Assembly: GCA_021817755.1 (NCBI GenBank)
Contig: JAKAGC010000077.1
Span: forward strand, 1-10,549
Direction: 5' to 3'
Source of the DNA: Acidobacteriota bacterium
Lineage (GTDB): Bacteria; Acidobacteriota; Aminicenantia; UBA2199
DNA: 10,549 nucleotides
Shown here: positions 232 through 10,549 of the stretch, in pieces
Layout of the letters: every line of letters starts with the position of its first letter
Numbering within the stretch: position 1 is the first letter of the stretch
Translations under genes and position numbers: made by a program
The notes under the pieces: generated by a model
The model's database searches: none
What the model saw: the letters and a program-made list of their open reading frames with translations, nothing else
Told to the model about the DNA's origin: nothing

Positions 232-435
232 ATGAAAGAAACAATTGCTAAAACAATTTTATCTATCTTAATAATAATTGGAATTATATTTACATTCATA
301 AATTTTTACTCAATTGATATTAGAGCTACGTCTGGAACAGGGAGAGGTGTGTGGGTAATCGATGAAATAACAGGTGATAGAGTATGTATGGGGCAAGGAA
401 ATGAATGTGATTTACCTAAAGAATGTGTTAGCTAG
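232..435 (+). CDS. Small membrane-anchored peptide with three cysteines
   Basis: This is a 67-residue protein of no family I recognise with certainty. A good Shine-Dalgarno (AGGTGG, 222-227) sits 4 bases before the ATG, which supports real translation. Residues 1-7 are polar and contain two lysines. Residues 8-26 are strongly hydrophobic, giving a signal peptide or signal anchor. The remaining ~40 residues are predicted to lie outside the cytoplasm, are glycine-rich at first (TSGTGRG) and end with Cys52, Cys59 and Cys65. The layout (propeller gene, tiny exported Cys peptide, thioredoxin-like gene) recalls the NVEALA-type peptides beside 6-bladed propeller genes in Bacteroidota, but the NVEALA motif itself is not visible. 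The odd number of cysteines leaves one free for a mixed disulfide, for example with the downstream thioredoxin-fold protein; that is inference. Confidence 0.7.
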   Translation: MKETIAKTILSILIIIGIIFTFINFYSIDIRATSGTGRGVWVIDEITGDRVCMGQGNECDLPKECVS

Positions 436-1031: not shown

Positions 1032-1173
1032 AATTCTCTGTTGTCTTTTTCAATAATTGATTCTATATTGCTGATTAATAATATAGTGAACTCTTATTTG
1101 AAATCTAAAAATTAATTTGGTTAAAAATATAAAGACTGAGTATTTTTATTCAAGATATTTTGATAGGATTAAA

Positions 1174-3708
1174 ATGAATAGGAAAAAATATTCCCTTTAC
1201 AAAAAAGATACCGTTTTTTTATTATTAATTCTTCTGATTTTTTGTATCTTAATTTCAGGGTGTTCAAGCAATAAGCGAAGATATGAACTAATGAGAATGG
1301 ATGAAAATGTATTGGAAGAGGAGCTTTATAAAGAAAATGATACTTCTCGAAAAGTTGATATTTATAATGAAATGGCGTATAGATGGCGCAGAAAGGATTC
1401 AAGCAAAGCAATTGATTGGGCTTCCAAAGCAGATAAATTAGCTAAAAATTTAGGGTATCAAAGAGGCGTGGTCGATTCATTGTGTAATAGGGGAGTAATC
1501 TGTTTTTACAAAAGCGAGTACAGTGCATCTAAAAATTACTATGAGACAGGTTTGGAATTGGCAAAAATTATTCATTATAGCCTCGGTGAAGCTGCCGCAT
1601 ATAATGGTATCGGACGGTATTACCAGGCAAGAAGAGAATATGCAACAGCTTTAGACAACTTTATAAAAAGTCAAGAAATATGTGAAAACATTAGCGATCC
1701 AAGAGAGCTTGCAGGGGCAAATTATGGTTTTGGAGCACTTTATTATTATGATCAAAAAGATTATACTAGTGCTCTCAAATATTTTAAAAAGAATATAGAA
1801 ATGGGCCGGAAAATAAATGATGATACCATTATTACAGGAGCCTATTATGCCATAGGGGAAATGTATTTGAATATGGGGGACAAGGAAACGGCCAAAAAGA
1901 ATTTTGAAAATTGTTTATCTCTCAGTAAAGAGAATAATGATATTTATAATGAAGCCAATGCTTATGAAGGATTGGGGGACTGGTATAAAATTCAAAGTGA
2001 TTATAAAAATGCATTTGAATATTATTTTAAAAGCAAATATTATTTTGAAAGACTTGGTGATGGGATGCAGAAAGCGGAAATACTGAAAAGAATGGGAATA
2101 CTCTTTAATTTACAAGCTGCTGCAACGGGTAAAAATGAGTTTTACCAGACAGCGCTTGAGTATCTGAAAGAGTCGTTAGATATTGCAAAAATAAAAAAAA
2201 TTCCAAGTACTATTGTTGATGTTTCCGAGGAGATGATTAAATCGTATATAGCTTTGGGTGAGTACGTTTCTGCTCTCGACATTTACAAAGTATTACTGGA
2301 AAATAAAGATTTCTTAAAAAAAAATGAAATGCTGAGAGTTAAAGTAATATTTGATTTTGAGAAAAGAAGTGAAACAGAAAGATTTAAGACGATATTTTGG
2401 ATAACCGTAGCCGGTTCTTTATTTATAGGTTTTGCTTTTCTATTATTATATTTAATAGAGTTGATACGAAAAAATAGAACAGTGGAAAATTTAAATGAAA
2501 TAGGTCAGGCAATTACCTCCTCACTTTCTGTTAAAGAAATAATCGAACGGGTGTATGACAATGTAAATAGACTGATGGCAGCAAAAGGGTTTTATATTGG
2601 AATTTATAATGAAATGAAGCAACGGCTTGAATTGTCGGATGGAAAAGAATTCGGGAAAAGAATGGATTTTCATTATAACGATTTGTCAGACAAAAACCGC
2701 TTAAGTGTTAAATGCTTTGTGAGTGAAATTGAAATCAAAATCGATGATTATGAAAGGGAATATAGTGAATATATTAATGAGGATTTACCTGTTAAAGTCG
2801 GGAATCAATTCAAATCTCATATATTTCTTCCCCTAATAGCATATAATGAGCAAGGAATGAAGAAAAAAATAGGTGTGTTAATTGTCCAGAGTGATAAAAA
2901 AAGAGCGTACACGGATTATCATTTGAATATATTAAGAAACCTTGCGATATATACAGCTATCGCTCTGGATAATGCCAATGCATATAAAAAGATCGATGAA
3001 CAGAAAAAGAAAGTAGAAAAAGCGCTTAGATTGGAACAAGATATAATTGATCATAAAGATATTCTTATCTATACGGTTTCCCACCAATTTAAAACTCCCC
3101 TTGCTATTATTGACGAATCGATACAGATTTTAAAATTTTACTATTCCAAATTAACCCAAGCTGAAATTCATGATCATTTTAAAGTAATTACTACAAATCT
3201 GGAGCGTATGTTAAATATGATCGACAAATTGCTAAAATTAGGAGAGGTCTTTAATCCCGGTAATTATAATCTTTCTGAAATTTGTAAAACTGTTATCGCA
3301 GAAGTAAAATCCGGAGAAGGGAGTAAAAATGACATTAATTTTTATAGTGAGTGTAATTGTAATAGAGTGTGGATGGATAAGGACTTAATGATTATCGCGA
3401 TTCACAATATCATCACTAATTCGATTAAATATTCTCCTGCGGGAAGCCGTATTGTATTAGAACTTTTATGTGATTCCGATTACGCGATAATAAAAATCGA
3501 AGATAATGGAAACGGTATTCCTGAAGATGAATTGGAACATGTATGGGTTCGGTTTAACCGGGGAGCGAATGTAAAAAATATCCCGGGAACCGGCTTAGGA
3601 TTAGCGATAGTTAAACGATATGTCGAATTGCACGGGGGAGAAAAACATATCGAGAGCAAAGTCGGTGAAGGTACAACGGTAACGATAAAAATTCCAAAGA
3701 ACGGATAA
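1174..3708 (+). CDS. TPR-GAF sensor histidine kinase with lipobox N-terminus
   Basis: This is a membrane sensor kinase of 844 residues from ATG 1174. That start is preferred over the in-frame TTG at 1117 because it has AGGAT just upstream and opens directly onto a signal sequence (MNRKKYS..., hydrophobic 14-28) ending in LISGC, a lipobox with Cys30. Residues ~32-400 are about eight TPR-like helical pairs, predicted periplasmic. A membrane helix at 407-430 is followed by a GAF-like domain (~439-609), a charged coiled coil and a HisKA domain with phospho-acceptor His637 in SHQFKTPL. The HATPase has the N-box (Asn749 in HNIITNSIKYS), G1 (Asp777 in DNGNGIP), the F-box (VWVRFNRG) and G2 (GTGLGL, 805-810), so all catalytic boxes are intact. 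The single-domain receiver gene 59 bases downstream is its likely partner. The ligand is unknown; TPRs usually bind peptides or proteins. A true lipid anchor on a kinase that also has a membrane helix would be unusual, and the Cys may simply sit in an ordinary signal anchor. Confidence 0.9.
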   Translation: MNRKKYSLYKKDTVFLLLILLIFCILISGCSSNKRRYELMRMDENVLEEELYKENDTSRKVDIYNEMAYRWRRKDSSKAIDWASKADKLAKNLGYQRGVVDSLCNRGVICFYKSEYSASKNYYETGLELAKIIHYSLGEAAAYNGIGRYYQARREYATALDNFIKSQEICENISDPRELAGANYGFGALYYYDQKDYTSALKYFKKNIEMGRKINDDTIITGAYYAIGEMYLNMGDKETAKKNFENCLSLSKENNDIYNEANAYEGLGDWYKIQSDYKNAFEYYFKSKYYFERLGDGMQKAEILKRMGILFNLQAAATGKNEFYQTALEYLKESLDIAKIKKIPSTIVDVSEEMIKSYIALGEYVSALDIYKVLLENKDFLKKNEMLRVKVIFDFEKRSETERFKTIFWITVAGSLFIGFAFLLLYLIELIRKNRTVENLNEIGQAITSSLSVKEIIERVYDNVNRLMAAKGFYIGIYNEMKQRLELSDGKEFGKRMDFHYNDLSDKNRLSVKCFVSEIEIKIDDYEREYSEYINEDLPVKVGNQFKSHIFLPLIAYNEQGMKKKIGVLIVQSDKKRAYTDYHLNILRNLAIYTAIALDNANAYKKIDEQKKKVEKALRLEQDIIDHKDILIYTVSHQFKTPLAIIDESIQILKFYYSKLTQAEIHDHFKVITTNLERMLNMIDKLLKLGEVFNPGNYNLSEICKTVIAEVKSGEGSKNDINFYSECNCNRVWMDKDLMIIAIHNIITNSIKYSPAGSRIVLELLCDSDYAIIKIEDNGNGIPEDELEHVWVRFNRGANVKNIPGTGLGLAIVKRYVELHGGEKHIESKVGEGTTVTIKIPKNG

Positions 3709-3767
3709 TATTGGAAAAAGAAAGAGAAGAGTAAATCCGAATAGAGAAAAAGAAGGAGGAATTTGAA

Positions 3768-4133
3768 ATGGCAACAGTTTTGGTAATTGAAGATGAAGTT
3801 CAACAATTGAACAATATTTGTCAAGTTTTGAAATTGGAGGGGTATGAGACTCTTCAAGCAGAAAATGGAAAAAAAGGCCTTGAAATGGCATTAACTCACT
3901 TACCGGATTTAATAATTTGCGACATCGATATGCCGGAAATGGATGGATTTGGAGTTCTTAAAGCATTGCAGGGAAATCCCCGTGTTTCTGCCATTCCTTT
4001 TATATTTCTTACGGTTTTTTCAACTCCAGCTCATATAGATAAAGCATTTAAAAAGGGGATCGATGCTTATATAATAAAACCGTTTAGTATTGTCGATCTG
4101 TTAAACAAAGTCAAAACCCATATTCGGGATTGA
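3768..4133 (+). CDS. Single-domain CheY-like response regulator
   Basis: This 121-residue protein is a receiver domain alone. It has the acidic pocket Glu8-Asp9, phospho-acceptor Asp52 in CDIDMPEMDG, Thr82 in FIFLTVF and the invariant Lys104 in IIKPF, so all the residues needed for phosphorylation are present. There is no output domain: the protein stops right after the last receiver helix. A strong Shine-Dalgarno (AAGGAGGA, 3753-3760) lies 7 bases before the ATG. It follows the histidine kinase by 59 bases and is presumably phosphorylated by it, then acts by protein contact or as an intermediate in a phosphorelay whose further parts are outside the window. No intrinsic terminator is obvious downstream. 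Confidence 0.93.
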   Translation: MATVLVIEDEVQQLNNICQVLKLEGYETLQAENGKKGLEMALTHLPDLIICDIDMPEMDGFGVLKALQGNPRVSAIPFIFLTVFSTPAHIDKAFKKGIDAYIIKPFSIVDLLNKVKTHIRD

Positions 4134-4606
4134 GCTAGTTGATATTGATAACAGGCTATTCCTATAAATGGTTTTGAAATTTGTCAATTCATGAAAAATT
4201 ATATAATCAATTTATTTCATCTGAAAAATAATTTTCCTCTTTCATAGGATTAAATGAGTTTAAAAGTTGTGATTCCGATCCACTGATTATTTGAATCCAA
4301 AAAATTGAAATTTTAGTCCCTTTTAAAGGCTATATGCTCTTGATGGGCTAGAAGAATTGTTCAATGATATGTCTTCTTTACCGGTTAACAGAATTCTCTT
4401 TAAATTCCCTCTCTTTATCGGATGTACTTTCTTATCTTTCCACTAATTTTCCGAAATTGTAGTAATTTCTGAGTTATTTTATTCTTTTAAAAGAAAACCA
4501 ACACCGGAATACCTTTTTCCTATCAGTGAATTAAACCTTTTATAAAAAAAATGAGGTGGAACTCTATAATTTTTTTAAAAAGTAAAATTTCTCCGTCTAT
4601 ATATGT
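4134..4606 (+). other. AT-rich intergenic stretch without a gene
   Basis: No convincing coding region is seen on either strand: open frames are short (for example 18 codons from ATG 4192) and lack ribosome-binding sites. The stretch holds several small inverted repeats made almost only of A and T, such as GAAATT/AATTTC at 4453-4469 and a 14-base palindrome at 4482-4495. These are within what AT-rich DNA gives by chance. The promoter for the peptide gene downstream should lie in its last part; TATAAT at 4565-4570 is a possible -10 box, but no good -35 stands at the right distance. Confidence 0.5.
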
Positions 4607-4707
4607 GTACAACGAATAAAGAAACCCGCAGGACGGGTACACGGGAAGTAGATATTACCCCTGATAACCTGCACGCGGAATAAAGCTAACGTACAACGGA
4701 GGAACCG
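4607..4707 (+). promoter_or_regulatory. Structured 5' leader of the peptide gene, flanked by direct repeats
   Basis: This segment is about 50% G+C (41 of 80 bases in 4621-4700), against about 27% in the preceding 120 bases. Nested complementary blocks can fold: GCAGG (4628-4632) with CCTGC (4668-4672), enclosing GGGTA (4635-4639) with TACCC (4656-4660). A competing small hairpin is possible, ACCCG (4624-4628) with CGGGT (4634-4638), so two alternative folds exist. Two direct repeats bracket the structure: GTACAACG at 4607-4614 and 4691-4698, and GAATAAAG at 4614-4621 and 4678-4685. The segment ends in the Shine-Dalgarno GGAGGA (4698-4703), 4 bases before the peptide ATG, and the last repeat copy touches that site. 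A regulatory leader RNA is inferred; I recognise no known riboswitch. Confidence 0.45.
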
Positions 4708-4866
4708 ATGAAACAAAAAAGTTCAAACAAATTAAATCTCAACAAAATCACTATCCAGGATATTAACGCGAAACTCTCTAACCTGGGCGGCGATGAATTG
4801 AAGATGGTTAAAGGCGGAGAATATCGTCCTGATACCGGCGTTACCTGCTTGATCGTCTACTGTTAA
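4708..4866 (+). CDS. KGG-leader RiPP precursor peptide (lanthipeptide-like)
   Basis: This 52-residue peptide has a strong Shine-Dalgarno (GGAGGA, 4698-4703) and its own terminator downstream. The leader, residues 1-37, begins MKQKSSNKLNLNKITIQDIN and ends DELKMVKGG. The 'KLNLNKxTI' block, a leucine-rich helix and a final Lys-Gly-Gly follow the plan of the GG-leader natural-product precursors and class I lanthipeptide leaders of Bacteroidota-type bacteria. The 15-residue core EYRPDTGVTCLIVYC holds Thr43, Thr46, Cys47 and Cys52, enough for one or two thioether rings (Thr to Cys) or a disulfide. In known systems a bifunctional C39 peptidase-transporter cuts after GG during export. No LanB/LanC, radical SAM or transporter gene is in the window, so it is an orphan precursor here. 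Its G+C (63 of 159, ~40%) exceeds that of its flanks. The class of modification is not determined. Confidence 0.82.
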   Translation: MKQKSSNKLNLNKITIQDINAKLSNLGGDELKMVKGGEYRPDTGVTCLIVYC

Positions 4867-4908
4867 GCTCCCCGGCTTTCTGTCGGAAACAGTGTAAGAA
4901 AACGGATG

Positions 4909-4953
4909 AGGCCAACCTAAAAGTATACTTTTGGGTTGGCCTTCTGTTTTTTT
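4909..4953 (+). terminator. Intrinsic terminator of the peptide gene
   Basis: GGCCAACCTAAAAG (4910-4923) pairs with CTTTTGGGTTGGCC (4928-4941) over 14 base pairs with one G-U wobble and a TATA loop; the A4909/T4942 pair extends it. A T-rich tract (4942-4953, ending in seven T) follows. This is a textbook rho-independent terminator on the plus strand. It lies 43 bases after the peptide stop codon and separates that transcript from the regulator gene downstream. Confidence 0.92.
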
Positions 4954-5009: not shown

Positions 5010-5038
5010 TTGAATTTTACTGCCGAATGTTTTATTAT
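5010..5038 (+). promoter_or_regulatory. Sigma70-like promoter for the propeller-AraC regulator
   Basis: TTGAAT (5010-5015) and TATTAT (5033-5038) are separated by exactly 17 bases and match the sigma70 consensus boxes at 4 of 6 and 5 of 6 positions. Transcription would begin near 5045, leaving a leader of about 23 bases before ATG 5068. Together with the upstream terminator this suggests the regulator is transcribed separately from the peptide gene. Confidence 0.6.
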
Positions 5039-5067: not shown

Positions 5068-7893
5068 ATGAAAATTATGTATCGGCAGGTCGTTAAGAAG
5101 AGGTTTTCTGCGTTTTTAATTTTAATATTCTTATTGGCGCTACAATTGTGGCCCGTTGCTCCCAATACATCCATTGAAAATTACCTGATCGATAAATGGG
5201 ATATCATTGATGGACTGCCTCCGGAAATTATTTCTATTACTCAAACTCCTGACGGTTACCTCTATATTGCAACAAATAAAGAATTATTCCGATTCGATGG
5301 TATCCGGTTTGAAATCGTTCCGTTCTATGAAGATATTAAAATTATCCCCAAAAAAAGTGTCTACCCAAATGCTCTATTTCTCGATAAATCAAAAATACTC
5401 TGGATTGCAAGTGCCTATGGCTTGACATCTTATGATTACAGAACGGGAAAATTCAAAACTCTTACTACTGAAGATGGGTTACCTTCGGATAAAATTCGAA
5501 AGGTTCAGGAGGATATGAGTGGTAACCTCTGGATTGGCTTTTTTGTCAGTTTTGCAGCACGTTATTCCAATGGAAAAGTAACAACGTTCGGCCCTTCTTC
5601 CGGATTGGAGGGTAAAAAAATAAATGCCATAATCGAAGATCGTTACGGTCGCTTAATTCTTGGAACTCGCGAAGATGGACTATTTATTTACAAAGACGGA
5701 CAGTTTTCACACTATATAATCGAAGGATTGAATTATTCCGAACTGAATGCAATCAGAGAGGATTCCCAGGGTGCCTTATGGATCGGAACCAAAAGCGGTT
5801 TGTCTCGGTTTATGGATGGAAAATTACGAGAATATACTTCTCATGATGGGCTATCCGGGAATTCAATATCTTATATCTTCGAAGATAGTGATAAAAATTT
5901 ATGGGTTGGTTCAAGTAACGGTTTAAACCGGGTAAAGGTCCTGGAAAACGGATCGATTAATATCGAGCACTTACTACCAGGTGAGATTGTACTTTATATA
6001 TTTGAAGATAGTGAAAAAAACGTATGGATCGGAACTGCACAACATGGATTGAAACGATTGAAAGATCGAAAGTTTTTTTCTGTTCCGTTTTTTGACTCAC
6101 AAATCGGTGAAGAATTTACGTCGCTTTATGAAGATGCGAATGGTGATATTTATGCAGGGTCTGTAAGCGGGAAGATATTCCGTTATAATCCTCTGAATGA
6201 GAAAACTGAAATTATCTACCCCCGGGAAATGAAGAACGCCAGTATCATTTCTTTTGCGAGAGATTCTGAAAACAATTTATGGATTGGAACAATAGGGAAG
6301 GGTGTTTTCAAATTAAAAAATAAAACATGGTCATCCTATACTACGAGCAATGGATTGGCAGATAATACGGTTACTTCAATTTTTAGTGATAGTGAGGGCT
6401 CTTTATGGTTTAGTACCCTGGATGGCGTGAGTGTATTAAAGAAAGGGGAAAATGTCATCCATACTTTTGGAACTAAAGAGGGATTGCCTGGAAAATGTGT
6501 ATCTTCAGTAATTGAGGATAAATCTAAGAATATATGGATCGCTACAGATAAAGGCATAATAGTTTTGAAAGATGGGAAACTTGAGAAAGCCAGTTCTATA
6601 TACTATCTTAAAGGGACGGTTGTTTCATGTATTTATGAAGATACCAATTCTCCCGGGGTTTTTTGGATTTCCACCAATGGCGACGGGTTAAAACGATTAG
6701 ATAAAAGTAACGGAAGAATTTTGTCTTTTAATACGTCTCTTGGGATGGCTACAGATTTTCTTTACCGGTTCTACGAAGACCATCAGGGTAATTTTTGGAT
6801 TGCCAGTAATAATGGCGTTCTTCGTATTGATAAGAATCCGTTAAATCAAATGGCTTATCGTGGGTTACAATGGATTAATTGTATATCTTATGATGTTTCA
6901 GATGGTTTGAAGGATATTGAATTTAATAATTATAACTCTGCAAATTCGGCGATCGAGATTAATAATGGAGAGTTCTGGTTTGTTACCAAAAAGGGTATTT
7001 CTACTGTGAATCCCGTAAATATCCTAATTAATAAAATGCCTCCCCAGGTTTTTGTTGAAAAGGTCAATATCGGAAATAAATCCTATTCTCCCATTGTATT
7101 TTTGAAACATTTTGAATCTAAAGGGAACAATGAAATCGGTTTTCGTTTTAGTGCTCCCACATTTCTTTCACCTTCAAAAGTGAAATATAAGTATTTTTTA
7201 AAGGGATATGACACAGATTGGGAATTTCTTCCCCAGGGGAGTGATCGATTTATCAGTTATAGAAACATTAATCCCGGAGAATATACATTCAAAGTCACGG
7301 CTTGTAATTCGGATGGTATATGGAATAGGGAGGGAGATTCCATTGTTCTTGTCGTAAAGCCTTTTATTTATCAAACATTGTTTTTTAAATTATTTATTTT
7401 ATTCTTTATTGCTTCGGTTGCAATGATTCTGGTTTATTTTCATATGAAAAGAAGAGAGATGCGTAAATCCCGTGAGAGTGTAGAAAAAAGCGAAGAAGAT
7501 AAGACAGATGAAAGTACGGAAACTAAGCGGATACCGTTACCTGAAGATGTTGTCGAATCTTTGACCCGGAAATTAAAACAGGTTATGGAAACTGAAAAGA
7601 TCTATAGAGACCAGGAAATTTCTTTGAAATCCGTAGCGGATCAAATTGGAACTACCCCTCATGTTCTTTCCCAATTACTGAATGAAAATTTAAACCGCAA
7701 TTTCGCTGATTTTATTAATTCATACAGAATTGAAGAGATTAAAGCCATTCTCGATGAACCCGAAGGACTGAAGAAAAAGAATTGGATACTTGCTCATGAT
7801 GCAGGATTTAATAATATGACCGTGTTTTATAAGGCATTTAAGAGATACACGGGAATGACTACCAATGATTATAAGAAGAAAATGAAAAAATAA
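5068..7893 (+). CDS. Transmembrane one-component regulator: propeller, Y_Y_Y, AraC-type HTH
   Basis: This 941-residue protein is built like the periplasmic half of a hybrid two-component propeller sensor joined straight to a DNA-binding domain. A signal sequence (hydrophobic ~14-30) is followed by about 14 Reg_prop repeats of the form 'i..i.eD..g.lWiGt..Gl.r', for example IREDSQGALWIGTKSGLSRF. These would make two seven-bladed propellers up to about residue 655. A Y_Y_Y domain (~707-765, YKYFLKGYDTDW...) precedes a single membrane helix (~773-791). A highly charged linker leads to a C-terminal AraC/XylS-type pair of helix-turn-helix motifs (~824-941, ending in GFNNMTVFYKAFKRYTGMTTNDY). No HisKA, HATPase or receiver lies between membrane and HTH, so signal transfer must be direct, probably through dimerisation. 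The start uses AAAAAGG just upstream; ATG 5077 is an alternative. It lies 201 bases after the peptide gene and is convergent with the caspase genes, 13 bases apart. The ligand and targets are not visible. Confidence 0.92.
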   Translation: MKIMYRQVVKKRFSAFLILIFLLALQLWPVAPNTSIENYLIDKWDIIDGLPPEIISITQTPDGYLYIATNKELFRFDGIRFEIVPFYEDIKIIPKKSVYPNALFLDKSKILWIASAYGLTSYDYRTGKFKTLTTEDGLPSDKIRKVQEDMSGNLWIGFFVSFAARYSNGKVTTFGPSSGLEGKKINAIIEDRYGRLILGTREDGLFIYKDGQFSHYIIEGLNYSELNAIREDSQGALWIGTKSGLSRFMDGKLREYTSHDGLSGNSISYIFEDSDKNLWVGSSNGLNRVKVLENGSINIEHLLPGEIVLYIFEDSEKNVWIGTAQHGLKRLKDRKFFSVPFFDSQIGEEFTSLYEDANGDIYAGSVSGKIFRYNPLNEKTEIIYPREMKNASIISFARDSENNLWIGTIGKGVFKLKNKTWSSYTTSNGLADNTVTSIFSDSEGSLWFSTLDGVSVLKKGENVIHTFGTKEGLPGKCVSSVIEDKSKNIWIATDKGIIVLKDGKLEKASSIYYLKGTVVSCIYEDTNSPGVFWISTNGDGLKRLDKSNGRILSFNTSLGMATDFLYRFYEDHQGNFWIASNNGVLRIDKNPLNQMAYRGLQWINCISYDVSDGLKDIEFNNYNSANSAIEINNGEFWFVTKKGISTVNPVNILINKMPPQVFVEKVNIGNKSYSPIVFLKHFESKGNNEIGFRFSAPTFLSPSKVKYKYFLKGYDTDWEFLPQGSDRFISYRNINPGEYTFKVTACNSDGIWNREGDSIVLVVKPFIYQTLFFKLFILFFIASVAMILVYFHMKRREMRKSRESVEKSEEDKTDESTETKRIPLPEDVVESLTRKLKQVMETEKIYRDQEISLKSVADQIGTTPHVLSQLLNENLNRNFADFINSYRIEEIKAILDEPEGLKKKNWILAHDAGFNNMTVFYKAFKRYTGMTTNDYKKKMKK

Positions 7894-7906: not shown

Positions 7907-8824
7907 TTATTGGAAAGTTATATTGTAAGTGCTTTTAGTGTTAAATAATATATTCCATCCTTCATGGGTAAATAATATAAATGAAGCCGGGGAATTGCAA
8001 TTCGAATTATTTAAATAACCATATTCCGGAAAATATCCGGTTGTTTCAATCAAATTAAAGCGGATTGCCATATAGATTTCTTTAATTTCTATCCATGGCT
8101 TTTTATTCTTTTCCAATTCCAATGTAAAAAGACGGGCGAATTCGGATTTCCCCGGAACTTTTTCAAACCCTCCCGAAGTCAAAACCTTTTTAGAACATCG
8201 ATTATAAATTTCTGGGAAGGTGTTTTGAATATTTTCCGAATTATCTGAGTCATATCCATTTGAGATAAGTGTGGATGCATAACAGGAATCGGAAACGATA
8301 AGAATATGGTTTGATTTTATTTTATTAATTAAACCGGTTAATTCTGAATTACTGAACCAATAGGCTCTTGAGTTGATGTCTATATCTGCATTATAAGGAA
8401 TCCAGTAACCGTTCCAGGATTCTTCTGTATAGGATTGACCATGCCCGCTGAAGTAGATTAAAAGCGAATCGTTTTCTTTTAATTGATTTTCTCTTCCTGC
8501 CTGAAAACTGATTAGATAATTGCGTATTGCTTCCTTAGTTGCGTTTTCGTTATATAATTCTTTCACTTCATCGAAATGGTATTTAGATACGATTACTTTC
8601 TTCAATCCTAGTGCTTCTTTTACCGGCCCGCGGATGGAAGGCCAGTACTGATAGTTTTCTATTGCGATGATGAATAGGTATTGTTTACCCGGTAATGAAT
8701 TTTCGATTGCCTGATTGTATTCTTCTTTGAATCCTTGCCGTATTACGATGCCTCGGCTCTCATTGGAAAAGAGCATGAGGTAAATAATCGTACCGGTAAG
8801 AAAACAAAAAAGAACTTTTTTCAT
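7907..8824 (-). CDS. Secreted caspase-like (C14) protease, single domain
   Basis: The protein has 305 residues from the ATG at 8824, which overlaps the stop codon of the upstream gene as TAATG. This start is preferred over the in-frame ATG at 8866 because it begins directly with a signal peptide (MKKVLFCFLTGTIIYLMLFS...) and sits at the coupling site, with GGAAAAAA before it. The caspase fold is visible: the first strand YLFIIAIENYQYW (~49-61), a helix with PVKEALGLKKVI, the strand LLIYFSGHGQ carrying catalytic His128, then ILIVSDSCYAS with catalytic Cys181. Both dyad residues are present, so activity is plausible. There is no added domain beyond the caspase unit. Export to the periplasm or outside is inferred from the signal peptide. 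Substrates are unknown; bacterial relatives often cleave after Arg or Lys. Confidence 0.88.
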   Translation of the reverse strand: MKKVLFCFLTGTIIYLMLFSNESRGIVIRQGFKEEYNQAIENSLPGKQYLFIIAIENYQYWPSIRGPVKEALGLKKVIVSKYHFDEVKELYNENATKEAIRNYLISFQAGRENQLKENDSLLIYFSGHGQSYTEESWNGYWIPYNADIDINSRAYWFSNSELTGLINKIKSNHILIVSDSCYASTLISNGYDSDNSENIQNTFPEIYNRCSKKVLTSGGFEKVPGKSEFARLFTLELEKNKKPWIEIKEIYMAIRFNLIETTGYFPEYGYLNNSNCNSPASFILFTHEGWNILFNTKSTYNITFQ

Positions 8825-10549
8825 TAATTTTTTCCAATTGTAAACGTATATTCTTGAGTACCCCAATTCTTCCCTGTACTTCGTCCTACGATCGATGAGG
8901 CGTTTTTTTCCAGAAGTCCGATATTTATTGGAACTTCGGTAACGATTAATTTGATAATTTCTTTTCCCGGTTTTTCAAGCAGCAAAAGTACACTGTTTTT
9001 CAAATCCACTTCACTTTCTGCCGGGATTAATGCTTTTTGCCATCGATCTCCCAGGTTTGGGAATATTGCTTCTGTTTTCCCATTTTCAGGGAGATCCAGA
9101 ATATAGACATAACAATCCTTACAACTATGATTTTTTATTTTGAAAGAAAGAATTGTTCCAGGTTGAAAATCACGATTATGTAACGATTCTGATGAATTGA
9201 ATTCCAATTGCTTTTTATACCATTTTTTATTTTCCCTAAAAAATTCTTCACGTAATCCTGTTCCTGCTGATGGAAACCAGGAAGTTATTGAAAGATGAAC
9301 ATTGATTTTAAGTTCTGAATCAAGATTTTTTAAGCGGTTTATATTGTTTCTTTTTTTCCAATAATTCATGAGGATATATAGTTCTCGTGAAAAGGGGAGT
9401 AGGGAATCACCAAATTTAAAGAACATGGCTACCCATTCGAAAGAGTAAAAAGTATTTTCTTCTTCTGTTACCAGATCGCCTACTTTTAATTTTGATCCTC
9501 CTTTTTTTAATATGGCTTCACTGTAGAAAGGCGTTACTCTGGTAATCATAAGCTGTGGAAGTTTCATTTTGTTTTTTATACCCGGATTATAAAGCCGGAA
9601 AAGTGTTCCCTGACAGATTCCCGATATATAACCTGCTTCGATTCTGATATTTTTTCCTCTATCCCATACTTTGCTAATAGGAATTCGAGGGGGAGCCTGT
9701 AGAGCATCGGTTCCAAATATTCCTTTATCCGGATCGCCTTGAAATTGAGGGTGTTGTTGATCAAAATAAGTAGAGACCATGATACTGGTTCTCTGAAAAA
9801 TATCACTCCAGGTTTCGCCAGACATTGCATGGCTTAATGCTTTGGCCCAATACCACGAAAATAAACCGTGGGTTTGCCCGTCAAAATTTGCTTCAAATGC
9901 CATTTCATTATCTTGTGAAGCCCCGATAAGAATACCAGTATTATATTCTTTATTAATCACTACTTTTGAGATTGGTTCGGGGTAATCATGATCGGGGGTG
10001 ACTGATCGAACCGTTAGAATATCACCCCGTGATGAACTACCGGAGTGGCATGAGTCCGAGATAAAAATTACATTCTCTGTTTTTTCAAAAATAGGAATTA
10101 ACCACATATTTATTTCATCATCTGTTATATCGTAACGGTCTTTACCTTCTACCTTAGTGCTTCTTGCACCATATGAAACCCAGGTTTGATCGTAAACTCC
10201 CGGATACTCATCTCCATTTCTATCCGGTACCAGTGAACCATGCCCACAGTAATGAATATAAACCCAATCTCCTTTTTTTAATTTTTGGGAAAGCTGGAAA
10301 AATGCCTTTTCAAGGGCAGTATGGGTGGCGTTTTGATTGAATGCAAATAGGATATTTTCCTCTTTAAAATGAAACGTATTTAATAGTATATTTTTTATCA
10401 TATATAAATCATTTCTCGGGCCTTCCAGGGATGGCAGGCCTGAAATCGTATAATCGGAAATACCTATTAATAAGGCATATTTTGTCTCTCCCCATAGATG
10501 TGAATATAATATAATAATATAAAGTAAAAGGACAATTTTTAGTGAGTTT
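8824..10549 (-). CDS. Secreted metacaspase-like protease with C-terminal DUF4384, 5' end off window
   Basis: The frame stays open past the first internal ATG (10401) to the right edge. The extra 49 codons matter: they encode a signal peptide (NSLKIVLLLYIIILYSHLWG) and the first caspase strand (KYALLIGISDY), so the true start lies just beyond the window and at least 574 residues are real. Numbering from the edge, the dyad is His103 (HYCGHGS) and Cys167 (ISDSCHSG). Between them are DEYPGVYDQTW (113-123) and DITDDE (140-145), typical of metacaspase-type p20 domains. After the ~240-residue catalytic domain comes a mixed region, then a DUF4384-like domain (~463-542) with GTILSFKIKN, YVYILDLPENGKTEAIFPN and LIVTEVPINI. 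DUF4384 often accompanies bacterial caspases and kinases; its role is unclear. The gene overlaps the second caspase gene by one base, so the two are translated together. Confidence 0.9.
   Translation of the reverse strand, partial: NSLKIVLLLYIIILYSHLWGETKYALLIGISDYTISGLPSLEGPRNDLYMIKNILLNTFHFKEENILFAFNQNATHTALEKAFFQLSQKLKKGDWVYIHYCGHGSLVPDRNGDEYPGVYDQTWVSYGARSTKVEGKDRYDITDDEINMWLIPIFEKTENVIFISDSCHSGSSSRGDILTVRSVTPDHDYPEPISKVVINKEYNTGILIGASQDNEMAFEANFDGQTHGLFSWYWAKALSHAMSGETWSDIFQRTSIMVSTYFDQQHPQFQGDPDKGIFGTDALQAPPRIPISKVWDRGKNIRIEAGYISGICQGTLFRLYNPGIKNKMKLPQLMITRVTPFYSEAILKKGGSKLKVGDLVTEEENTFYSFEWVAMFFKFGDSLLPFSRELYILMNYWKKRNNINRLKNLDSELKINVHLSITSWFPSAGTGLREEFFRENKKWYKKQLEFNSSESLHNRDFQPGTILSFKIKNHSCKDCYVYILDLPENGKTEAIFPNLGDRWQKALIPAESEVDLKNSVLLLLEKPGKEIIKLIVTEVPINIGLLEKNASSIVGRSTGKNWGTQEYTFTIGKN

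What the first reader, a model, noticed from the sequence alone, without database searches (positions are those of the whole stretch)
4708..4866. Unlisted 52-residue KGG-leader peptide gene, an orphan RiPP precursor
Seen: a strong Shine-Dalgarno, a 37-residue leader ending in KMVKGG, a 15-residue core with two Thr and two Cys, and a perfect intrinsic terminator behind it. Known: leaders with 'LNLNK.TI...L...E...VKGG' belong to GG-leader natural-product precursors and class I lanthipeptides. Inferred: the core TGVTCLIVYC could carry one or two methyllanthionine rings, or another thioether. No modifying enzyme is nearby, so the product depends on enzymes encoded elsewhere or on an unknown modification.
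Basis: partly seen in the sequence, partly recalled or inferred. Interest (0 to 1): 0.75.

Follow-up and report, generated by a model that had tools for sequence, protein, structure and literature searches.

The report
Peptide gene paired with propeller sensor
A tiny gene in an uncultured bacterium encodes the precursor of a small, probably ring-closed peptide that in related genomes nearly always sits beside one particular kind of membrane sensor, so it may be a chemical signal with its own receptor rather than a stray antibiotic.

Summary
The 52-residue gene at 4708-4866 is real: SD, KGG leader, 15-residue core, strong terminator. It is not a lone orphan. A profile found 21 full-length members, itself included, in 6 of 34 family genomes (Candidatus Aminicenantes); all 21 keep Thr six residues before a near-terminal Cys. 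In 17 of 19 readable loci a double-propeller/Y_Y_Y/AraC membrane regulator follows on the same strand, here 5068-7893. A collection scan with the regulator brought back 15 of those loci and three new ones: one with a new peptide of the family, one without, one unreadable. Linked regulators form one clade. Peptides have alternative-sigma-like promoters (sigma-54-like 8 of 21, ECF-like 5 of 21 including this one), regulators a sigma-70-like one (13 of 18). LanB, LanC and a C39 exporter lie elsewhere in the genome, with 48 other lanthipeptide leaders over cut-off. Best reading: a GG-leader, probably lanthionine-ringed signal, exported and read by its neighbouring propeller receptor. The pairing is shown; ring, export and ligand role are inferred.

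The parts
4573..4597 (+). putative ECF-sigma-like promoter of the peptide gene (TTTTAAAAA-N12-CGTC)
   Evidence: pattern with 8 occurrences in 1.69 million strand-bases of fetched loci: 4 upstream of sigma-factor-like genes (one of them in this genome), 3 upstream of peptides of this family, 1 elsewhere
4698..4702 (+). Shine-Dalgarno GGAGG
   Evidence: sequence
4708..4866 (+). 52-aa GG-leader precursor peptide gene
4708..4818 (+). leader, 37 residues, L-x-L-x-K-x5-(L/I) ending in KGG
   Evidence: motif as described in PMC7268733 (passages), where the last residue is L; here it is I
4819..4863 (+). core EYRPDTGVTCLIVYC; conserved pair Thr46 (codon 4843-4845) and Cys52 (codon 4861-4863), predicted ring
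   Evidence: Thr at Cys-6 in 21 of 21 genome members and in 71 of the 72 best database members
4908..4943 (+). intrinsic terminator between peptide and regulator
   Evidence: strong hairpins after the other testable siblings
5010..5038 (+). putative sigma-70-like promoter of the regulator, TTGAAT-N17-TATTAT
   Evidence: same form in 13 of 18 linked regulators, 0 of 21 peptides
5068..7893 (+). partner: Reg_prop/Y_Y_Y/AraC (HTH_18) one-component regulator with an N-terminal helix and a helix at residues 771-798 taken as membrane spans
   Evidence: Pfam; AF2 model mean pLDDT 82, best PDB match 4a2m BT4663 sensor, E 8.3e-50

Best explanation
The gene encodes the precursor of a small RiPP signal. 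SHOWN by sequence: it belongs to a peptide family whose members keep Thr and Cys six apart and lie directly upstream of one clade of propeller-AraC membrane regulators; a terminator separates the two genes and their upstream promoter-like sequences are of different kinds. INFERRED: when an ECF-like sigma factor (a homologue is encoded on contig C726 of this genome, with a zinc-finger-like anti-sigma and an M48-TPR protein) or, in siblings, sigma-54 is active, the precursor is made; a general LanB (with LanC) encoded elsewhere dehydrates Thr46 and joins it to Cys52 (methyllanthionine, 7-residue ring; Thr43-Cys47 could give a second); a C39 ABC transporter cuts after KGG and exports the 15-residue core; the core binds the periplasmic double propeller of the separately expressed regulator at 5068-7893, and its cytoplasmic AraC domain changes transcription of genes not yet known.
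For: Linkage in 17 of 19 readable loci, 12 of 14 without the five loci in which I first noticed it. Regulator scan: one new locus found without using the peptide (L196) carries a peptide with Thr at Cys-6. Linked regulators plus one unlinked form a clade, 100/100. No other neighbour family reaches that frequency: next is 7 of 21 loci, then 4. Peptide upstreams: sigma-54-like in 8, ECF-like in 5, sigma-70 form in 0 of 21; regulator upstreams: 0, 0 and 13 of 18; that AraC regulators do not usually serve sigma-54 promoters is recalled. LanB in exactly the 7 of 34 family genomes with leader-profile hits. C39-ABC in the genome. Some siblings pass the NF038180 or NF038153 cut-off.
Against: No modification, export or binding is shown. 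The window peptide is below the lanthipeptide cut-offs and the L196 peptide matches no NCBIfam model. G007 has three members and LanB but no LanC hit at E <= 1e-5. Two readable peptides have no regulator next to them (G000:C75, G003:C227); one close regulator (L194) has no peptide. The regulator scan is mostly not independent: 15 of its 18 close loci are forward loci, from the same five assemblies. Core, leader, sensor and HTH distances all correlate (rho 0.40-0.65), which co-inheritance alone explains. The nearest solved sensor senses heparin/heparan sulphate. Eight of 21 peptides show neither promoter form; sigma-54 itself was not searched for. The promoter patterns were written after I had read the upstreams.
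Confidence: 0.48

Rival explanations
1. The peptide is the output, not the input: a small antimicrobial or other effector RiPP whose production is controlled by the adjacent propeller-AraC regulator, which senses a glycan or cell-envelope cue.
For: The adjacency is equally expected; the sensor fold is that of glycan-sensing HTCS; lanthipeptides can have antibacterial as well as signalling activity (PMC12715929, passages).
Against: Promoter-like sequences upstream of the peptides are sigma-54-like (8 of 21) or ECF-like (5 of 21, two of them only by the relaxed pattern), and none of the 21 has the sigma-70 form seen at the regulators; no transporter or immunity-like family recurs across the loci (ORFs of 100 aa or more within 6 kb); cores have one fixed Thr-Cys pair, whereas many other leader genes of this genome encode Cys-rich cores.
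Confidence: 0.31
2. The unprocessed precursor or leader acts inside the cell as a partner of the regulator or of its transcript; no ring, no export.
For: G007 lacks a detectable LanC; a terminator lies between the two genes.
Against: Conserved GG site and C-terminal Thr-Cys motif and the co-occurrence of LanB with the leaders in the family, 7 of 34 genomes, argue for maturation, though genome size confounds the latter; the sensor part resembles a periplasmic domain.
Confidence: 0.1
3. Unconnected neighbours: an orphan RiPP precursor that lies beside an abundant regulator type by chance or by block inheritance.
For: Y_Y_Y proteins are common here (30 to 72 matches per genome); all loci come from six related genomes, so block inheritance is not excluded for each pair.
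Against: 30 matches in 4.7 Mb would not give 17 of 19 adjacencies by chance; the loci have mostly different flanking genes; linkage is confined to one regulator clade.
Confidence: 0.05

Closest known systems
Class I lanthipeptides of Bacteroidetes / pinensin family (NF038153, NF038180)
   Same: L-x-L-x-K-x5-L leader often ending in GG with C39 proteases, and split LanB as for pinensin (PMC7268733, passages); here Lant_dehydr_N and _C are separate ORFs on C50; 9 of 21 members hit the pinensin leader model at E <= 1; two of the best 72 database members are named 'pinensin family lanthipeptide'
   Different: one conserved ring pair in a short core, no enzyme gene at the locus, recurring regulator partner, alternative-sigma-like promoters
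HTCS / one-component double-propeller sensors (BT4663, BT3049, BT4673)
   Same: Reg_prop double propeller plus Y_Y_Y; one PDB title calls BT4673 a putative one-component system, another a hybrid two-component system
   Different: AraC domain directly behind the membrane helix, and partnered with a RiPP-type precursor gene
Nisin-type autoinducing lanthipeptides (NisRK)
   Same: a ringed, leader-processed peptide as signal; nisin ring C also joins Thr and Cys six apart (all recalled)
   Different: receptor would be a propeller-AraC one-component protein, and precursors are scattered away from shared enzymes
Precursors each followed by a putative signalling protein in Bacteroidales RiPP cluster BGC5 (PMC10352776, passages)
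   Same: precursor next to a signalling protein; signalling role suggested by the authors
   Different: that cluster carries rSAM, LanC-like and HK/RR genes; the word 'propeller' does not occur in the main text

Membership tests
Class I lanthipeptide precursor (NF038153) | score over curated cut-off 22 bits | tested here: not met
   17.9 bits, E 0.0025; 11.6 bits, last of 60, in the genome scan; sibling G001:C156 has 22.3 bits
Class I lanthipeptide precursor (NF038153) | LanB and LanC available in the genome | tested here: met
   LanB on C50 (522 bits) with a Lant_dehydr_C ORF; LanC on C743 and C684; none at the locus
Class I lanthipeptide precursor (NF038153) | (methyl)lanthionine in the product | not testable with these tools
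   needs mass spectrometry
Pinensin family (NF038180) | score over cut-off 24 bits | tested here: not met
   not listed for the window peptide at E <= 10; 3 of the 7 family members given to pass (43, 36.8, 37.9 bits)
rSAM-modified GG peptide (TIGR04149) | score over cut-off 25 bits | tested here: not met
   14 bits
GG-leader peptide exported by a C39 ABC transporter | GG site and a C39-ABC transporter in the genome | tested here: met
   KGG at residues 35-37; C129 encodes C39 + ABC_membrane + ABC_tran; whether it handles this peptide is not tested
HTCS-type propeller sensor (regulator) | double Reg_prop propeller and Y_Y_Y sensor fold | tested here: met
HTCS-type propeller sensor (regulator) | histidine kinase and receiver domains | tested here: not met
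   AraC-type HTH only; hence a one-component regulator, not an HTCS
Peptide pheromone system | peptide binds and activates the paired receptor | not testable with these tools
   needs binding and reporter assays

The most novel reading that the evidence does not exclude
Double beta-propeller membrane regulators, known from solved structures as glycan sensors, have been turned into receptors for cognate ringed RiPP pheromones in Aminicenantes; one genome runs several parallel peptide-receptor pairs that share one set of modifying enzymes, with the signals switched on by ECF or sigma-54 factors and the receptors made from housekeeping promoters. A second, histidine-kinase clade of propeller sensors did the same with other GG-leader peptides.
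Probability: 0.38. Interest if true: 0.85.

Novelty: new variant of a known kind. Interest (0 to 1): 0.72.

Why it matters
It would give an uncultured bacterial group a predicted peptide signalling system, give candidate ligands to a large class of propeller sensors that are usually thought of as sugar readers, and offer a reason why lanthipeptide-type precursors lie scattered far from their enzymes. The unit is small (52 codons plus one receptor) and can be rebuilt in a laboratory host, so the idea is directly testable.

Tried and rejected
Rfam and tRNA scans of the window: nothing. Pfam on the peptide: nothing at E <= 1. Literature, one library of open-licence PMC papers only: 0 papers for Aminicenantes + lanthipeptide, propeller regulator + lanthipeptide, Reg_prop + peptide pheromone, and the combinations; 6 for Aminicenantes + RiPP, by their listing unrelated; 1, seen as a listing only. 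Searches gave 4, 21 and 11 lanthipeptide papers, of which I looked at passages of three (PMC7268733, PMC10352776, PMC12715929) and only the listing of the rest. This is weak evidence of novelty. Mantel tests do not separate ligand-receptor coevolution from co-inheritance. Phylum search, 396 genomes drawn evenly: apart from this genome only G106 and G398 match at E <= 0.001, none reaching the last columns of the profile. G006:C102 (E 1.8e-6) was read and dropped from the family: different core (Thr at Cys-6 of no terminal Cys motif) and no regulator.

Corrections on the way: one search used a wrong ORF for the L196 regulator and a wrong leader split for the window peptide; redone. The 50-row tree holds two rows that are not regulators, let in by a length filter (shown); they lie outside the clade.

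Full report
THE OBSERVATION. The ORF at 4708-4866 is there as described: 52 codons, GGAGG five bases before ATG, a 37-residue leader ending in KMVKGG and a 15-residue core EYRPDTGVTCLIVYC. The terminator is strong (16-pair stem 4908-4943; -35.1 kcal/mol, z -9.7). The curated leader models see the peptide only weakly: NF038153 17.9 of 22 bits, TIGR04149 14 of 25 bits; Pfam has nothing.

THE GENOME. The window is contig C9 of a 4.74 Mb, 811-contig genome, 79.6% complete. That genome has 60 matches to NF038153 at E <= 10, 48 of them over the cut-off (two with the help of their neighbours in frame); the window peptide is the weakest of the 60. In 14 control genomes five have matches at that lax threshold, none over the cut-off. 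Enzymes are elsewhere: LanB on C50 (522 bits) with a separate Lant_dehydr_C ORF beside it, a second LanB-like protein and LanC on C743, a LanC on C684, one C39-ABC exporter on C129. Among the 34 genomes of the family LanB occurs in 7, the same 7 that have leader-profile hits at E <= 0.01; LanC in 6 of these 7, not in G007. This co-occurrence is confounded: the 7 are also the large genomes (4.7-10.4 Mb against 1.8-3.4 Mb).

THE FAMILY. A single-sequence search of 60 relatives gave hits at E <= 0.01 in 4 genomes, this one and three others. A profile of eight sequences then found 21 members at E <= 1e-10 in 6 of 34 family genomes: 3 in G000, 4 in G001, 6 in G002, 3 in G003, 3 in G007, 2 in G013; the eight used for the profile are among them. 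The next match is at 7e-8; most of the further listed matches stop before the core, some span it and were not read. Aligned, the 21 share T-x-x-[PIR]-x-[FYL]-C, mostly with G two before the Thr; Thr and Cys six apart are invariant in 21 of 21, while Cys47 of the window is not conserved. In the protein database 106 proteins match at E <= 0.001; of the best 72 (E <= 4.2e-7, genome members included) 71 have Thr six before a Cys and P0072 has Ala. This count leans on a profile that includes the motif; the independent case is the L196 peptide below. The seven of these 72 for which a source names the organism are all Candidatus Aminicenantes. Two leader types share the core: NF038153-like (14 of 21 match at E <= 1) and pinensin-like NF038180 (9 of 21, best 8e-15).

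THE PARTNER. Reading the loci showed a Reg_prop/Y_Y_Y/AraC-type regulator downstream on the same strand in 17 of 21, starting 96-501 bases away as the ORFs are called. In G003:C926 a 122-aa repetitive ORF and in G002:C62 a 111-aa opposite-strand ORF lie between; G002:C62's regulator is read as two pieces and G000:C318's is cut by the contig end. Of the other four, two peptides sit at contig ends (G002:C644, G007:C183) and two have no such gene next to them (G000:C75, G003:C227): 17 of 19 readable. Leaving out the five loci where I first saw it (window, G001:C21, G001:C156, G002:C62, G002:C603) it is 12 of 14. Y_Y_Y matches number 30 in this genome and 31-72 in the other five. An all-against-all comparison of 127 neighbour ORFs of 100 aa or more within 6 kb finds the propeller family at 18 of 21 loci (the 17 plus one not adjacent at G003:C227), a large secreted-looking protein family at 7, anti-sigma-like and M48-TPR-like families at 4, a sigma-like family at 3, and the rest at 3 or fewer.

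REVERSE SEARCH. A scan of the named genome collection with the alignment of 16 regulators (A3) returned 41 loci: 18 close (39-48% identity) and 23 distant (32% or less). Fifteen of the 18 are loci already counted above, from the same five assemblies. The three new ones: L196 carries an upstream peptide (MKKETLHLEKNTIQHLNLVAETLDDEALENLRGGQDDQRRATIVPVICE; Thr six before Cys; hairpin and T run behind it; profile E 7e-8), L194 has none, L199 is cut at its 5' end. So within the close group 16 of 17 readable have a peptide, but only one of two readable loci is new evidence. None of the 23 distant loci matches the peptide profile below E 6. In a tree of 50 rows (17 linked, 33 others, two of which are not regulators) the linked ones plus one unlinked (L194 = G003:C87) form a clade with 100/100 support; the label needs 2 changes against a shuffled mean of 14.4 (midpoint root, 8 of 47 inner branches weak).

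THE REGULATOR. Window 5068-7893: ten Reg_prop stretches, Y_Y_Y, a helix at 771-798 (taken as the membrane span), HTH_18, no kinase. The AF2 model (mean pLDDT 82.3, pTM 0.65) matches the periplasmic sensor of BT4663 (4a2m, E 8.3e-50, TM 0.62/0.76), then BT3049 and BT4673. Five linked relatives given to Pfam have the same layout.

PROMOTERS. These patterns were written after reading the upstreams, so they describe more than they test. TGGCA-N6-TTGC (the sigma-54 consensus, recalled) lies upstream of 8 of 21 peptides at -79 to -106; its rate in the fetched loci predicts 0.1, and 500 shuffles give at most 1. Among 59 other leader-model hits of this genome (one of them the family member C318) one site was found, counted for two adjacent C290 peptides. 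The window and others instead have TTTTAAAAA-N12/13-CGTC, with 8 occurrences in 1.69 million strand-bases: three sigma-operon upstreams from which the exact form was written (L091, L092, L096), the window peptide (4573-4597), G002:C603, G007:C183, one unrelated place, and one upstream of this genome's homologue of that sigma factor on C726, which is the blind hit. That sigma homologue is 45% identical and over the Sigma70_r4 cut-off; the ORFs behind it match zf-HC2 below (18.6 of 22.2 bits) and M48 over (24.3 of 20.3) the cut-off. A relaxed form adds G001:C156 and G013:C777. The linked regulators have TTGAAW-N16-18-TAYWMT in 13 of 18 (210-nt windows; shuffles at most 1), the peptides in 0 of 21 (300 nt); no regulator upstream has either peptide-type pattern. 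Eight peptides, and L196's, show neither form. Hairpins follow all 20 testable peptides (z -2.2 to -8.3 against 60 mononucleotide shuffles each); G003:C926 has no T run, and the one scored for G001:C156 is weak.

HOW IT PROBABLY WORKS. See Best explanation. The step from paired genes to ligand and receptor is inference. It rests on pairing without another equally common neighbour, several diverged pairs per genome, a secreted-type peptide beside a periplasmic-type sensor, and promoter-like sequences that suggest separate control, of kinds an AraC partner would not usually serve (recalled). The main rival, peptide as regulated output, stays open at about 0.3. Distance correlations (core-sensor 0.48, core-HTH 0.50, leader-sensor 0.58, sensor-HTH 0.65) do not decide it.

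A SECOND CLADE. A uniform scan for SD plus GG/AG leader plus Cys within 1.5 kb upstream, either strand, of 44 other propeller-regulator ORFs hit 4 of the 5 members of one clade (G013:C403, G000:C531, G001:C206 divergent; G000:C290 in tandem; G000:C296 has a leader-like peptide without GG) and 1 of 30 others (G007:C389) with at least 300 bases upstream; 9 could not be judged. Two of the five were checked and carry HisKA/HATPase. The scan was designed after I had seen these cases and needs an independent survey.

KNOWN OR NEW. The leader motif, GG site and C39 link are those described for Bacteroidetes class I precursors (PMC7268733, passages). A Bacteroidales survey reports precursors each followed by a putative signalling protein and suggests signalling (PMC10352776, passages). 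My searches of open-licence PMC found no paper that ties RiPP precursors to propeller-AraC regulators. I rate it a new variant of a known kind: a peptide signal with an unusual receptor class.

Noticed in passing
G000:C290 (L053:3798-4810, minus strand): Five lanthipeptide-leader matches (four over cut-off) in a row, with one sigma-54-like site, directly upstream of a propeller histidine kinase.
   Followed up: partly
G000:C531 (L177:7255-7359 and 7601-7732): Two very short GG-leader peptides ending RPIIDCAP and RPILSCCP, divergent from a propeller regulator; the first is over the TIGR01847 bacteriocin-leader cut-off.
   Followed up: partly
G000:C75 (L078:4743-4892): Peptide of the same family (core SYADTGITSIRVFC, sigma-54-like site) without a regulator beside it; possibly a second ligand or a lost receptor.
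   Followed up: partly
neighbourhoods of G001:C112, G001:C21, G002:C29, G002:C57, G002:C603, G003:C392, G013:C777: A large secreted-looking protein family (e.g. L147:2633-6643) recurs within 6 kb of 7 of 21 peptides; a candidate target of the regulators (single-linkage grouping, not examined further).
   Followed up: no
G000:C677, C788, C431 (and C546, cut): Leader-like peptides with a shared CWENLWT..YYC..IW core, a different family.
   Followed up: no
window 7907-8866 and 8824-10401 (minus): Two caspase-domain (Peptidase_C14) proteins, the second with a sub-threshold DUF4384 match.
   Followed up: no
window 232-435: 67-aa peptide with a hydrophobic N-terminal helix and three Cys near the end, followed by an ORF with a sub-threshold thioredoxin match; recalls NVEALA-type peptides, but no model passed its cut-off.
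   Followed up: no
window 1117-4133: TPR-GAF histidine kinase and single-domain response regulator upstream of the peptide; no related neighbour at the other 20 loci.
   Followed up: partly
window 4610-4870: G+C 44% against 34% for the window; the peptide ORF itself 40%.
   Followed up: no
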